Virus record (IMG/VR): IMGVR_UViG_3300032323_003820
Coordinates: 1-64,000 of that record
From: a virus
Strand: one strand, 5' to 3'
Length of the DNA stretch: 64,000 nt
Within the stretch, counting starts at the first letter, position 1. Each line of letters opens with the position of its first letter. Under the pieces are notes generated by a model. The model did not search any database and had not been told where the DNA came from. It worked only from the letters and a program-made list of their open reading frames with translations. Made by a program: the position numbers and the translations under genes. Positions 53,918 to 62,367 of the stretch are shown piece after piece.

Positions 53918-54337
53918 TTAGATGATGTTAATCTTATTTTTTCTTTTTTCAGTGTCCTTGTTATATTTCGGAATATAAACCGTAAGGATACCGTCAGAGA
54001 TTGTTGCTTCAATTGTTGAAGAGTTGTATGTGTTATTCAGTTTAACTCTTTTACTTATTGTTTTTTGTTTTTCAACCCCGTTAACTTTATATTTTCTTAG
54101 ACCTTCCAACACTAATTCAGAACCCTCTACAGTAATTTCTAAATTTTCTTTGTTGAAACCTGGTACTTCAAAATGAAGATACGCTCCGTCTTTTACGTGA
54201 TTTATTTCATAATCCTCATCTTTTACATACTCTGTCTGCTCGTCAACTGGAACTAAACGATAGGTACTTGAGTAATAAGTTGATGGAGAATTGAAGAACT
54301 TGTCAAACAATTTGTTAAAATCATTTCCGTAAATCAT
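53918..54337 (-). CDS. Hsp20 small heat-shock protein
   Basis: 139 residues. The alpha-crystallin domain spans about 45-130: AYLHFEVPGFNKENLEITVEG, LVLEGLRKY, KRVKLNNTYN and the closing ATISDGILTVYIPKY. Such holdases bind unfolding proteins and pass them to ClpB/DnaK-type machines. No TATTTATA motif precedes it. It is divergent from the ClpC-like gene over a 209-bp spacer, so the two chaperone genes share a control region. Confidence 0.9.
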   Translation of the reverse strand: MIYGNDFNKLFDKFFNSPSTYYSSTYRLVPVDEQTEYVKDEDYEINHVKDGAYLHFEVPGFNKENLEITVEGSELVLEGLRKYKVNGVEKQKTISKRVKLNNTYNSSTIEATISDGILTVYIPKYNKDTEKRKNKINII

Positions 54338-54546: not shown

Positions 54547-56553
54547 ATGAATGAATTAATGGATGATGACGATAAGCAAACGAGTAAGAAAAAGAATACA
54601 GATAGTTCTACTCCCGTTTTAGATAATTTCAGTCGAGACTTAATCAAACTTGCTGAAATGGGTAAACTCGACCCTGTTATTGGTCGAGAAAAAGAAATTT
54701 TGAGAATTGCCCAAATTCTTTCGAGAAGAAAGAAAAATAATCCTGTAATAATTGGAGAACCTGGTTGTGGTAAAACCGCTATCGTAGAAGGATTGGCCAT
54801 TAAGATTTATAATGGTGAGTGTCCGAGAAATTTAGTCGATAAAAGGATAGTCGCTTTAGACCTAACTTCAGTTGTTGCTGGTACAAAGTATCGTGGACAA
54901 TTCGAAGAAAGGATGAAAGTCATCATGGAAGAACTACAGCAAAACCCTAACATTATTGTATTCATCGATGAAATACATACGTTGGTTGGTTCAGGAAATG
55001 CTGCAGGGTCGATGGATGGTTCAAATATATTCAAACCCGCATTAGCTCGTGGTGAACTCCAATGCATTGGAGCAACAACTTCTGATGAGTTCCGTAAATC
55101 ATTCGAAAAAGATGGAGCATTGGAAAGAAGATTTCAGAAAGTTGTGGTTGACTCTGCAACAGTTGCTGAAACTATAGAAATATTGAAAAACGTTCGTGAT
55201 AAGTATGAAACTTTCCATAAAGTGACCTACACCGATGAAATAATTGAAACTTGTGTGAAACTTGCAGACAAGTATATTACAGACAGAGAGTTTCCTGATA
55301 AAGCTTTCGACATCTTGGATGAAGTTGGAGCTAGGATGCAAACTGAACTCAAGGTTCCTGAAGTTATTGATGATTTGAAGAAAAAAGCTGCGGAACTCAG
55401 ACAAATGAAGATGGACGTGGTTAAAAAACAAAACTACGAACAAGCCGCGGAACTGAGGGATAAAGAAAAGAAACTTATCACAAAACTCGAAAGTGAAAAG
55501 AAGAAGTTCGAGGAACAACTTCAAAAAGAAAAACAACCAATCACTTTAGAAGATGTTTATGATGTTGTTTCCACAATAACCAAAATCCCTGTTTCTAAAA
55601 TGTCCGTGGACGATGTCAAAACTCTTGTCAACTTGGATAAAGAACTTGTGGGTAAAGTTATTGGTCAAGACGATGCTGTTCTCAAAATTGTTAAATCAAT
55701 CAAGAGAAACAGACTCGGAATCAAAGACCCGAATAGACCTATTGGAACATTTGTATTTTTGGGCTCTACTGGTGTCGGTAAGACCTATTTGGCAAAACAA
55801 CTCGCTAAAGAAATGTTTGGTAGTGAGGAATCTCTGATTAGGGTTGATATGAGTGAATACCAAGAGAAACACACTATTTCAAAATTGGTAGGTGCTCCTC
55901 CCGGATATGTTGGATATGATGAAGGTGGTCAACTCACTGAGAAGGTGAAAAATAAACCTTACGCAGTAATACTTTTCGATGAGGTAGAAAAAGCTCATAA
56001 AGACATTTTCTCAATCCTCCTTCAAATCATGGATGATGGTTATGTTACCGATAGTTTGGGACGTAAGATTAATTTTAAAAATACCCTCATCATCCTCACA
56101 TCAAATTTGGGTGTAAAGAAATTTCAAGAATTTGGTGCAGGTATCGGGTTTGGAACTAACTCATATTCAAATGAGGAAGCGAAGAAACAAATCTTGATGA
56201 AAGAAATGAAAAATTTCTTCTCACCGGAATTTCTCAACAGAATAGATGATACCATTATGTTTAATACTCTATCTGAGGAAGATATCAAGAAAATAACCCG
56301 CATAGAGTTAGACAAATTGGTCAATAGATTGTCGGAAATGAAATACAAAATCAAATACAACGAGTCCGTGGTTGAGTATATAGCAAAAATTGGTTACGAT
56401 AGTACCTATGGTGCTCGTCCAATGAAAAGAGCAATTCAGGATAAAGTTGAAGACTTTTTATCTGAAGAAGTTCTTCTTGGTAAACTTAAAGAGAACACAC
56501 AGTATGTTCTCAAAGTAGAAGAAGAAACGGTTAAGATTACAAAGGGTAAGTAG
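54547..56553 (+). CDS. clpC: ClpC-like AAA+ unfoldase lacking the N-domain
   Basis: 668 residues (ClpC/ClpB usually 810-860). AAA-1: Walker A GEPGCGKT (70-77) and IIVFIDEIHTLVG. The middle has a UVR motif (NYEQAAELRDKEKK, about 296-309), a ClpC mark, and no long ClpB M-domain. AAA-2: Walker A GSTGVGKT (406-413), VDMSEYQEKH, GAPPGYVGYDEGG and VILFDEVEKAHKDIF. A GIGFG loop near residue 535 sits where ClpA/ClpC carry the ClpP-docking tripeptide. The Clp_N adaptor domain is absent, only a 25-residue acidic/basic tail remaining. Inference: it may dock to host ClpP with altered substrate choice. Confidence 0.9.
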   Translation: MNELMDDDDKQTSKKKNTDSSTPVLDNFSRDLIKLAEMGKLDPVIGREKEILRIAQILSRRKKNNPVIIGEPGCGKTAIVEGLAIKIYNGECPRNLVDKRIVALDLTSVVAGTKYRGQFEERMKVIMEELQQNPNIIVFIDEIHTLVGSGNAAGSMDGSNIFKPALARGELQCIGATTSDEFRKSFEKDGALERRFQKVVVDSATVAETIEILKNVRDKYETFHKVTYTDEIIETCVKLADKYITDREFPDKAFDILDEVGARMQTELKVPEVIDDLKKKAAELRQMKMDVVKKQNYEQAAELRDKEKKLITKLESEKKKFEEQLQKEKQPITLEDVYDVVSTITKIPVSKMSVDDVKTLVNLDKELVGKVIGQDDAVLKIVKSIKRNRLGIKDPNRPIGTFVFLGSTGVGKTYLAKQLAKEMFGSEESLIRVDMSEYQEKHTISKLVGAPPGYVGYDEGGQLTEKVKNKPYAVILFDEVEKAHKDIFSILLQIMDDGYVTDSLGRKINFKNTLIILTSNLGVKKFQEFGAGIGFGTNSYSNEEAKKQILMKEMKNFFSPEFLNRIDDTIMFNTLSEEDIKKITRIELDKLVNRLSEMKYKIKYNESVVEYIAKIGYDSTYGARPMKRAIQDKVEDFLSEEVLLGKLKENTQYVLKVEEETVKITKGK

Positions 56554-59502: not shown

Positions 59503-59534
59503 TTTGGTGAATAATATATTTATTCTTACCTTTG
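59503..59534 (+). promoter_or_regulatory. Host-type (Bacteroidetes) promoter of the tmRNA gene
   Basis: TTTG (59503-59506), 20-nt spacer, TACCTTTG (59527-59534), an exact match to the Bacteroidetes -33/-7 consensus TTTG/TAnnTTTG. It stands 19 nt before the predicted mature 5' end. Confidence 0.65.
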
Positions 59535-59553
59535 TAAGGTTCTTTGAAAATAT

Positions 59554-59976
59554 GGGGAAGACATGGAATCGACTGCAATATGTAGGTACAAGTGGCATGT
59601 CGGAGCTGAATTAACTCCGTAAAAACTGATTTAAAAAACAAATGGCAATACTTTTGCTAAGATGTCTGCTCTCGGTTTGATGAGAGAAGCGTCTGTTGTT
59701 GCTGCGTAATCGTAGAGAACAACACTCGGGTCGGTAAGGACATACACCTAGGAACAGAAGTCCATGAGGTCTAACAAATACCGCGTGATTCAGTTCAGGA
59801 AATTTGTTTGGTGGTGTTTTCGGTTCAAGCCAACTTAATAGGAACCGACCACAGTTGTTAGTTCTAATGGAAAAATAAGAACTATCTATTTGTTGATTGA
59901 GAACTAATCAAATAAACATGTAGTCATTTGTGGTTGCTATTGCAAGACGAGGGTTCGAGTCCCTCCTTCTCCACCA
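59554..59976 (+). ncRNA. ssrA: Transfer-messenger RNA
   Basis: 423 nt. The ends form a tRNA-like acceptor stem, GGGGAAG with CTTCTCC (one G-U pair), followed by encoded ACCA. The conserved 5' TGGAATCGAC and a T-arm GAGGG-TTCGAGT-CCCTC are present. The message part starts about 88 nt in; a hairpin (GCTCTC...GAGAG) covers the middle of the tag frame, and the following 200 nt can hold pseudoknots. tmRNA rescues ribosomes on broken mRNAs and tags their products for proteolysis. Own promoter and terminator. Confidence 0.92.
59641..59709 (+). other. tmRNA tag reading frame
   Basis: 22 sense codons and TAA. It begins NGNTFAKM and ends REASVVAA. The resume codon is either AAT (59641) or GGC (59644). 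The hydrophobic VVAA end is the kind recognised by Clp proteases. Bacteroidetes tags are usually about 9-11 residues, so this one is about twice as long. Confidence 0.7.
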
Positions 59977-60005
59977 ACAGTTTTAAAAAATGAGTTTGGA
60001 AAACT

Positions 60006-60039
60006 TAAAACCCCGTTGACAAATAGTCTCGGGGTTTTT
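60006..60039 (+). terminator. Rho-independent terminator of the tmRNA gene
   Basis: AAAACCCCG/CGGGGTTTT stem with a 14-base loop and a T-run, 30 nt after the encoded CCA end. Confidence 0.85.
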
Positions 60040-60114
60040 TGTTAGCCCAAACTTAACACAAAAAATGAGGTCATTTAACTTTAATTTTCTAATTATTGGT
60101 TTCAACAAAAAATT

Positions 60115-62367
60115 ATGTTAAGAAATTTATTTTTATTATTGGTTTTACCAATATTCAGTTTTTCCCAAGACACATTGTTCAATCAAAAGTTAGATGAAGT
60201 TAAAATTAAAAGTACAACTAAGAAAGAAACCAACATTGCAGTAATCAATATTGTAAGAAACAGTTCAGTCGTTTCTGATGGACTTTCAGTAGAGTTTATC
60301 AAAAAAACTCCTGATAGAACTGTCGGAGATGCCCTCAAAAGAGTAAATGGAGTAACAATTCAAAACGACAAGTTTGTTTTGGTTAGAGGATTATCAGATA
60401 GGTATAATTCAGCAATACTTAATAAAACTCTTCTTCCTTCAACTGAACCTGACAGAAGAGCATTTTCATTTGATATTATCCCATCTAACTTAATAGATAA
60501 TATTATTGTTTCAAAATCAGCAATCGCATCATTACCTGGCGATTTTGGTGGTGGTATAATTCAGGTGAACACTAAAGATGTATCGAAAAATTTTTTTACG
60601 ATAGGAATGGGTTCGGGTTACGGGACCGTTTCCACATTCCAAAAATTCAGCTCGGTGGAATATATTCCGTTTCCCATGAACTTTCCGTCCACATACGATT
60701 TTAGAGTTTCTTCAAATGGTGATAGAAGAGCGTTTACTAAACTAATAGGGTCTCCTAACTCTAAAACAACAAATTCATTTCCTAACCTAAATGGTAATTT
60801 GTCTTTTGGTTATAAAAAAGATAAATGGAATTTGTTAATGTCGGCAAATGCAAGAAATTCATTTTCTCTAAATTTTATTGACAGACAAGATTATCAATCA
60901 TCTACTGAATTGGCTTACAAATATAAAGACACGTCATTTACAAAAGTATTTTTGGTTAATGGGTTAATGAACCTAACTTATTTAGGTCAAAACAAATATT
61001 CTTGGAAAACATTATTTAATCACCAAATTGAAAATTCTTATCTGACAAGAAATGGTGAGAATTATGATAACGTACAAGATGTTAGAAGTAATTCTTCTAA
61101 TAATATTGTTAAGACAATTGTAAATTCACAATTTGATGGTAAGATAAAAACTTTAGATTTTAATGTTGGTTGGAACTTGATGATTAGAGACCAGCCTGAC
61201 TATAGAGTCAACCCTATTGCAAAGTCATTAGGGACGAATACAGAGTATACAACCGCTTGGAGAGACACATACAGGTTTTGGTCTGTAATGGACGAGAATT
61301 CATTCAATGGTTCGTTAAATAAGGAGATAAACGATTTCAAGGTTGGTGTATCTTATTTGAAAAAATTAAGAAATTTTAAAGCAAGAATTTTCAGATATGA
61401 TGCTGAAGATATGTTAAATGAAATAACAAATAACACTGACAAATATGGTGCCGATTTTGATTTGGGTGCTGGATATGTTCAATACGATAAAACACTTGGA
61501 AAACTCAAGGTAAATGGTGGACTTAGAACTGAATATAATTTATTCAATGTCGAAACATCAGATTTCAGCGGACAACAGGTTCAGGTGAATAGAGAGTATT
61601 TGGACTTCTTACCTTCTATCAACCTTTCATATAATTTAGAGAAAACAAAATTCAGAACTTCATTTTCCAAAACACTTTCAAGACCTGAGTTTAGAGAAGT
61701 TGCTAATTTTGCATATTACGATTTCGTAAGAAATGCACAACTCTTAGGTAATACAAATTTAGAAAAGACTGACATCTATAATTTAGACCTTAAGTGGGAA
61801 TACTATCCAAAATCAGGTGAGAATGTATCAGTCGCTCTATTCGGTAAGAACTTTGTAAGACCAATAGAACAAATAGTGGCAGATGGTTCAGTACCATCCA
61901 ATCTTCTTTTAACTTTCACAAATCCTGACAGAGCAAATGTTTATGGTATTGAATTTGAACTTAGAAAACAAATTAACAAATGGTTAGATGTTTATACAAA
62001 TTCTACAATATCAAACTCACATGTTGAAGTTAATGGGGTGGGAAGACAATTACAAGGACAATCAAACTACGTGGTTAATGGTGGTTTGAATTTCCATAAA
62101 GGAAATAATACATTTAACATTTCATATAACAGAGTGGGTGATAGAATTTCTGCAGTAGGATTTCAGGGTTATGCAGATATATTCGAAAACTCAAGAGACG
62201 TAATAGACATTGTTTACCTATTAAAAATTAAAAACGGTGAACTTAAAATCGCGGTTGGTGACATATTAGCTCAACCAACGGTATACTATCAAAAAATAAA
62301 CAACAGAGAGTTAATTAAAACAAATAACGAACAAACTCTCTCGGTTTCGCTAAACTTAAATTTATGA
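60115..62367 (+). CDS. TonB-dependent outer-membrane receptor
   Basis: 750 residues. Signal peptide MLRNLFLLLVLPIFSFSQ. Plug domain about 55-175: DRTVGDALKRVNGVTIQ, FVLVRGLSDRYN, SKSAIASLPGDFGGGIIQVN. A 22-strand-type barrel follows, ending in a beta signal (QTLSVSLNLNL). No N-terminal carboxypeptidase-like domain, usual in Bacteroidetes receptors of this class. It would import a TonB-coupled substrate, or alter phage or colicin access. The stop overlaps the next start by 4 bp, so they form an operon. Substrate unknown. Confidence 0.9.
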   Translation: MLRNLFLLLVLPIFSFSQDTLFNQKLDEVKIKSTTKKETNIAVINIVRNSSVVSDGLSVEFIKKTPDRTVGDALKRVNGVTIQNDKFVLVRGLSDRYNSAILNKTLLPSTEPDRRAFSFDIIPSNLIDNIIVSKSAIASLPGDFGGGIIQVNTKDVSKNFFTIGMGSGYGTVSTFQKFSSVEYIPFPMNFPSTYDFRVSSNGDRRAFTKLIGSPNSKTTNSFPNLNGNLSFGYKKDKWNLLMSANARNSFSLNFIDRQDYQSSTELAYKYKDTSFTKVFLVNGLMNLTYLGQNKYSWKTLFNHQIENSYLTRNGENYDNVQDVRSNSSNNIVKTIVNSQFDGKIKTLDFNVGWNLMIRDQPDYRVNPIAKSLGTNTEYTTAWRDTYRFWSVMDENSFNGSLNKEINDFKVGVSYLKKLRNFKARIFRYDAEDMLNEITNNTDKYGADFDLGAGYVQYDKTLGKLKVNGGLRTEYNLFNVETSDFSGQQVQVNREYLDFLPSINLSYNLEKTKFRTSFSKTLSRPEFREVANFAYYDFVRNAQLLGNTNLEKTDIYNLDLKWEYYPKSGENVSVALFGKNFVRPIEQIVADGSVPSNLLLTFTNPDRANVYGIEFELRKQINKWLDVYTNSTISNSHVEVNGVGRQLQGQSNYVVNGGLNFHKGNNTFNISYNRVGDRISAVGFQGYADIFENSRDVIDIVYLLKIKNGELKIAVGDILAQPTVYYQKINNRELIKTNNEQTLSVSLNLNL

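What the first reader, a model, noticed from the sequence alone, without database searches (positions are those of the whole stretch)
59503..60039. Phage tmRNA with its own host-type promoter and an unusually long tag
Seen: acceptor stem with encoded CCA, T-arm, a 22-codon tag frame ending VVAA, a perfect TTTG-N20-TACCTTTG promoter and a terminator. Known: Bacteroidetes tags are short (around GxxxxALAA); a few phages encode tmRNA with unlike tags. Inference: the phage runs its own ribosome-rescue system early in infection and marks stalled products with a tag that host adaptors may not read as usual.
Basis: partly seen in the sequence, partly recalled or inferred. Interest (0 to 1): 0.8.

Follow-up and report, generated by a model that had tools for sequence, protein, structure and literature searches.

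The report
Phage tmRNA paired with phage ClpC–ClpP
A family of large, uncultured viruses that probably infect Bacteroidota carries its own ribosome-rescue RNA, which adds a long and unusual tag to unfinished proteins, and nearly always also carries its own Clp unfoldase and protease, so these viruses may tag and destroy proteins by a route separate from the host's.

Summary
The tmRNA is real: window 59554-59976 (+), called by ARAGORN and by Rfam RF00023 (106.9 bits, gathering score 47). It has G3·U70, an encoded CCA, a 21-aa tag (GNTFAKMSALGLMREASVVAA), a host-type promoter and a terminator. The window is part of a 94.5-kb fragment of a T4-like phage. The tag belongs to a conserved phage class: length is 21 aa in 66 of 66 contigs of a tag scan and the core is fixed, but the C-terminus varies (VVAA, VVEA, VVKA, VVGA, VVTI, VAVA). 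In host tags the C-terminal LAA is the fixed part. No tmRNA with this tag was found in genomes of 84,980 prokaryote species. In relatives, ClpC always has this tmRNA 2-6 kb downstream when the contig extends far enough. Sister phages without ClpC carry a different long tag with a host-like end (ADYAVAA). Best reading: functional ribosome rescue using host SmpB and AlaRS, with the tag probably routed to the phage's own ClpCP. Rescue is well supported; the routing is inferred from comparison and untested.

The parts
59503..59534 (+). Bacteroidota-type promoter TTTG-N20-TACCTTTG
   Evidence: Exact match; TAnnTTTG at the same place in 50 of 58 relatives, 1.4 expected.
59535..59553 (+). Short 5' leader with GTTCTTTGA at 59539-59547, which resembles an rRNA boxA (resemblance from general knowledge)
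   Evidence: TTC[TA]TTGA in the 20 nt before the 5' end in 31 of 58 relatives, a looser form in 47.
59554..59976 (+). tmRNA gene, one-piece, CCA encoded, G3-U70
   Evidence: ARAGORN; RF00023 106.9 bits; G3-U70 kept in 58 of 58 relatives with compensatory changes elsewhere in the acceptor stem.
59644..59709 (+). Tag reading frame GNTFAKMSALGLMREASVVAA, stop TAA
   Evidence: ARAGORN; 21 aa in 66 of 66 contigs; dN/dS 0.42 in frame against 0.68 and 0.87 in the other frames.
60007..60040 (+). Intrinsic terminator: hairpin followed by U-run
   Evidence: -16.2 kcal/mol, z -4.9.
54547..56553 (+). Phage ClpC-like AAA+ unfoldase, 668 aa, N domain absent, IGF loop present
   Evidence: Best solved relatives are B. 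subtilis ClpC chains, E 2e-218, aligned from ClpC residue 151; Pfam AAA_2, AAA_lid_9, ClpB_D2-small; motifs kept in 84 of 84. Its partner ClpP lies outside the window at record positions 83323-84000.
53918..54337 (-). Hsp20-like small heat-shock protein; neighbour, relation to the system unknown
   Evidence: phrog_432, E 5e-9.

Best explanation
The phage carries a working trans-translation RNA. Host RNA polymerase transcribes it from its own Bacteroidota-type promoter. Host AlaRS charges it through G3-U70, and host SmpB and EF-Tu carry it to ribosomes stalled on broken mRNAs during infection. Translation then resumes on a conserved 21-aa frame and the rescued protein receives a phage-specific tag. 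The tag is most likely delivered to the phage's own ClpC (N domain lost, so probably adaptor-independent) docked on the phage's own ClpP, rather than to host ClpXP. Shown here: tmRNA anatomy, promoter conservation, conservation of the tag, absence of the tag from sampled host genomes, intact ClpC and ClpP motifs, and tight linkage of this tag class with ClpC and usually ClpP. Inferred: expression, charging, use of host SmpB, and recognition of the tag by phage ClpCP.
For: tmRNA. Tag conserved in length and core but variable at the C-terminus. ClpC with docking loop, Walker motifs and pore loops in 84 of 84. ClpP with catalytic motifs. Linkage: 40 of 42 ClpC+ records have the tmRNA 2.0-5.9 kb downstream on the same strand and the other two are cut off; 24 of 24 informative records among those chosen by ClpC alone. 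ClpP in 21 of 27 ClpC+ records tested, five of the six misses near contig ends. Nine ClpC-minus sister records all carry the other tag class ending in A[VI]AA. Precedent for tags following the protease: Mollicutes and Lon (PMC9382460).
Against: No direct evidence that ClpC binds the tag. The two tag classes follow two phage clades (portal about 40% identical), so the association may be a single event. The window's own tag ends in VAA-like residues that host ClpXP might accept. ClpP lies 23 kb away, not in an operon. G053 has ClpC and the tag but no ClpP found. The more distant Mahaphages W01 and W02 have ClpC and ClpP but no full tmRNA above the cut-off.
Confidence: 0.5

Rival explanations
1. 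Ordinary phage tmRNA: it rescues ribosomes and its tagged products are degraded by host ClpXP or ClpAP through the C-terminal VAA-like end. The long front part is spacer, and phage ClpC and ClpP serve another purpose such as proteome takeover or virion assembly.
For: Many class A tags end in AA or VA. ClpXP tolerates variants such as LVA and AAV (PMC9382460). Jumbo-phage Clp proteins have been proposed to act in assembly or against host proteins (PMC7824862).
Against: Ends VVTI, VVEA, VVKA and VVGA recur in many contigs, which poorly fit a ClpX degron. The internal part is what is conserved. Linkage of the tag class to ClpC is close to complete.
Confidence: 0.27
2. Rescue without destruction: the tag lets ribosomes be recycled but is not a degradation signal for any protease, or even shields phage proteins, so that little protein is wasted.
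For: Variable, sometimes charged or isoleucine C-terminus.
Against: A protective tag need not be 21 aa long with fixed internal residues; a ClpC-ClpP pair accompanies it.
Confidence: 0.14
3. A host ssrA gene captured at an assembly join or a prophage border, not a phage gene.
For: A TonB plug/OMP barrel gene lies directly downstream.
Against: The tag is in 66 viral contigs and in no sampled host tmRNA. The TonB-like gene itself occurs in at least 80 viral contigs. tRNA genes and phage-like genes continue beyond it.
Confidence: 0.02

Closest known systems
Bacterial tmRNA (ssrA), Rfam RF00023, one-piece form
   Same: Full-length covariance match, G3-U70, T-arm, encoded CCA, tag frame with stop.
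   Different: 21-aa tag whose fixed part is internal and whose C-terminus varies; typical tags are about 10 aa and commonly end in LAA (PMC11915505, PMC9382460).
Phage-encoded tmRNAs (Bacillus phage G, mycobacteriophages Bxz1 and Wildcat, OM43 phage Melnitz, huge phages)
   Same: tmRNA on a phage genome (PMC4131195, PMC9004378, PMC7162821).
   Different: No nucleotide match to any of 50,697 GenBank phage records; linked to phage ClpC and ClpP, a linkage I did not find described.
Mollicutes ssrA tag and Lon
   Same: Long tag that departs from LAA and is read by a different protease (PMC9382460).
   Different: Cellular and Lon-based; here virus-borne and, by inference, ClpCP-based.
Bacterial ClpC-ClpP
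   Same: Two AAA+ modules, [IV]GF docking loop, ClpP with catalytic triad.
   Different: The phage ClpC lacks the N-terminal domain that binds adaptors in bacteria.

Membership tests
tmRNA (RF00023) | Covariance model score above the curated cut-off over the full model | tested here: met
   106.9 bits against 47, model positions 1-374.
tmRNA (RF00023) | Alanine identity G3-U70 in the acceptor stem, with encoded CCA | tested here: met
   Present here and G3-U70 in 58 of 58 relatives.
tmRNA (RF00023) | Tag reading frame with stop codon, conserved as peptide | tested here: met
tmRNA (RF00023) | Works with SmpB and is alanylated | not testable with these tools
   No SmpB found in this record; host SmpB would be needed. 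The record is a fragment.
Canonical ssrA degron | C-terminal LAA-like end kept across relatives | tested here: not met
   Position 20 is A, T, G, V, E or K; position 21 is A, I or V.
ClpC unfoldase | Two AAA+ modules with Walker A/B, pore loops and ClpP-docking loop | tested here: met
ClpC unfoldase | N-terminal adaptor-binding domain | tested here: not met
   Alignment starts at ClpC residue 151; the protein has only about 12 residues before it.
ClpP protease | Ser-His-Asp catalytic motifs | tested here: met
   Pfam CLP_protease E 4e-57; MAASMG, MLHQ and RD motifs aligned to solved ClpPs and kept in relatives.
Bacteroidota phage | Host signals: TTTG/TAnnTTTG promoter, no Shine-Dalgarno | tested here: met
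   Promoter position conserved; 0 of 49 ORF starts with an SD core. The host itself is not identified.

The most novel reading that the evidence does not exclude
A self-contained viral tagging-and-destruction pathway: a phage tmRNA writes a phage-specific degron that the phage's own ClpC-ClpP reads, so that proteins stalled in infected cells are recycled independently of host ClpXP. To my knowledge no virus has been described that carries both a trans-translation tag and the protease for it.
Probability: 0.4. Interest if true: 0.85.

Novelty: new variant of a known kind. Interest (0 to 1): 0.62.

Why it matters
Phage tmRNAs have been recorded for years without a clear role. Here tag class and phage protease genes vary together across related phages, which makes the question of who reads the tag directly testable in vitro with a few short constructs. 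If the tag is private to the phage protease, it is an orthogonal degron-protease pair of the kind Mollicutes evolved with Lon, but virus-borne, and it would show that some large phages run their own protein quality control.

Tried and rejected
Host ssrA or chimera: rejected. Statistical support for the promoter from pattern counts in the window alone: not significant; replaced by positional conservation. Homologous tmRNA DNA in GenBank phages: none found. Phage SmpB: none in this record; found in four of 39 records searched. ARAGORN's short tags such as AEEATVVA were artefacts of a mis-set frame start; the full frame is 21 aa. Apparent tmRNA absence in four ClpC+ records was a sensitivity problem: a profile found it in all four, and in two of them a group I intron match abuts it.

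Full report
OBSERVATION. ARAGORN and the Rfam covariance model place one tmRNA at 59554-59976 (+) (106.9 bits, full length). The acceptor stem GGGGAAG/CTTCTCC contains G3·U70 and CCA is encoded. The tag frame 59644-59709 reads GNTFAKMSALGLMREASVVAA. The promoter TTTG-N20-TACCTTTG is at 59503-59534. A hairpin with a U-run at 60007-60040 folds far better than shuffles (z -4.9). The bare promoter pattern is common in the window (10 matches, 6.6 expected), so the case for it comes from relatives: 50 of 58 distinct tmRNA loci have TAnnTTTG 15-40 nt before the 5' end, 1.4 expected from mononucleotide shuffles. In seven of the remaining eight the same promoter sits further upstream, displaced by an inserted structured RNA.

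WHERE IT IS. The window is the first 64 kb of a 94,520-base IMG/VR record. It encodes a T4-like portal, major head protein and terminase. Ten tRNA genes lie beyond the window. Portal relatives at 76-99% identity are found in 80 viral contigs. The best isolate matches are about 36-38% (Microcystis phage Mel-JY01, Flavobacterium phages immuto). Zero of 49 ORF starts carry a Shine-Dalgarno core, which together with the promoter type points to a Bacteroidota host. The host is not identified.

THE TAG CLASS. A degenerate pattern for the front of the tag found 66 viral contigs, all encoding exactly 21 aa. The pattern does not constrain length or C-terminus, so both observations are free of that bias. 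Over 46 distinct tag DNAs, G1, K6, G11, L12, E15 and V19 never change in residue; position 20 takes A, T, G, V, E or K, and position 21 is A in 41, I in 4 and V in 1. dN/dS is 0.42 in frame and 0.68 and 0.87 in the other frames; the recovery pattern favours the front motif, so this is a modest test. Deeper relatives found through ClpC keep the general plan (GNVLNKMALVGLVRQDELVNVA, GETFAKLEAVGLLAAEEVTVA). In genomes of 84,980 prokaryote species the pattern had one hit, in an Anaerolinea MAG, in an unrelated frame and without a tmRNA call.

CLPC AND CLPP. Three kilobases upstream, 54547-56553 encodes a double AAA+ protein. Its best solved relatives are B. subtilis ClpC chains (E 2e-218), aligned from ClpC residue 151 on, so the adaptor-binding N domain is missing. 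The ClpP-docking loop [IV]GF, both Walker A/B pairs and both pore loops are present in 84 of 84 homologues aligned. The same record encodes a ClpP at 83323-84000 with the Ser, His and Asp motifs.

CO-OCCURRENCE. Of 42 IMG/VR records with this ClpC, 40 have the tmRNA homologue on the same strand, 2.0-5.9 kb downstream. The two without it end within 3 kb of ClpC. Because some records were chosen by the tag, the fair subset is the 26 chosen by ClpC: 24 of the 24 that extend far enough have it. ClpP was found in 21 of 27 ClpC+ records tested, 14-27 kb beyond the tmRNA. Five of the six misses end before or near that point; G053 is a true exception. Nine records of a sister group without ClpC (portal about 40% identical where both are held) carry tmRNAs with another long tag of the type ADVELSTMTFEDAMAFVGADYAVAA, whose end resembles host tags. 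No record examined mixes the classes. This is strong linkage, but possibly one evolutionary event.

MECHANISM. Shown: the RNA has the parts needed for alanylation and tag translation, sits behind a conserved promoter, and its peptide is conserved. Inferred: it uses host AlaRS, EF-Tu and SmpB, because no SmpB was found in this record. Inferred: the tag is read by phage ClpCP. The argument is that the last three residues, critical for ClpX (PMC9382460), are free to vary; that the fixed part is internal; that an unfoldase without adaptor domain and a ClpP travel with it; and that sister phages lacking ClpC keep a host-like tag end. The Mollicutes-Lon pair is a precedent for tags following the protease (PMC9382460).

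KNOWN AND NEW. Phage tmRNAs are known (PMC4131195; PMC9004378 counts 402 phages, 2.3% of those then available), and huge phages are reported with tmRNA and SmpB (PMC7162821). Jumbo-phage ClpP and Clp ATPases are known separately (PMC7824862). Tag lengths of 8-35 aa are known (PMC8012679). I found no report in the held library linking a phage tag class to phage ClpC and ClpP; that library lacks most subscription journals and all preprints. I therefore file it as a new variant of a known kind.

Noticed in passing
L355:1405-1490 (record G030); also upstream of tmRNA in L090, L112, L130, L141, L184, L214, L244: A conserved, well-folding RNA of about 80 nt (AAATCAC...GTGATTT closing stem) is inserted between promoter and tmRNA. 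Its core occurs in 40 viral contigs; 20 of 28 distinct copies lie directly before a tmRNA, others before a tRNA or another conserved non-coding-looking stretch. Rfam has no match. Possibly a processing element or ribozyme.
   Followed up: partly
L419:2872-3088 (record G061) and L420:3353-3569 (record G067): Group I intron matches directly abut the 3' part of the tmRNA, so two phage tmRNAs appear to be intron-interrupted in the T arm, a site type known from bacterial tmRNAs (PMC11915505).
   Followed up: partly
L376:305-416 (LR756508.1) and L377:251-387 (LR756511.1): Two huge phages have a second, very short tmRNA-like RNA (112 and 137 nt) with tRNA-like ends and G3-U70 but no room for a usual mRNA-like domain, reminiscent of the DS6A phage RNA reported to inhibit host tmRNA (PMC11915505).
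   Followed up: no
60115-62367 (+): A TonB plug/outer-membrane-barrel gene lies just downstream of the tmRNA and has relatives in at least 80 viral contigs; an outer-membrane receptor-like protein is unusual cargo for a virulent phage.
   Followed up: partly
L372-L374, L344, L347, L348, L350, L366, L369, L370: Sister phages without ClpC carry a second long tag class of the type ADVELSTMTFEDAMAFVGADYAVAA, conserved among themselves and with a host-like end. Its long front part is unexplained.
   Followed up: partly
L381 (record G053) and record G046: Two relatives carry their own SmpB; in G053 smpB lies about 500 bases from the tmRNA on the opposite strand, and that record lacks a detectable ClpP.
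   Followed up: no
L417:3876-4281 (LR745206.1): A GOLLD RNA (287 bits) lies a few kilobases upstream of the ClpC gene in a 634-kb phage.
   Followed up: no
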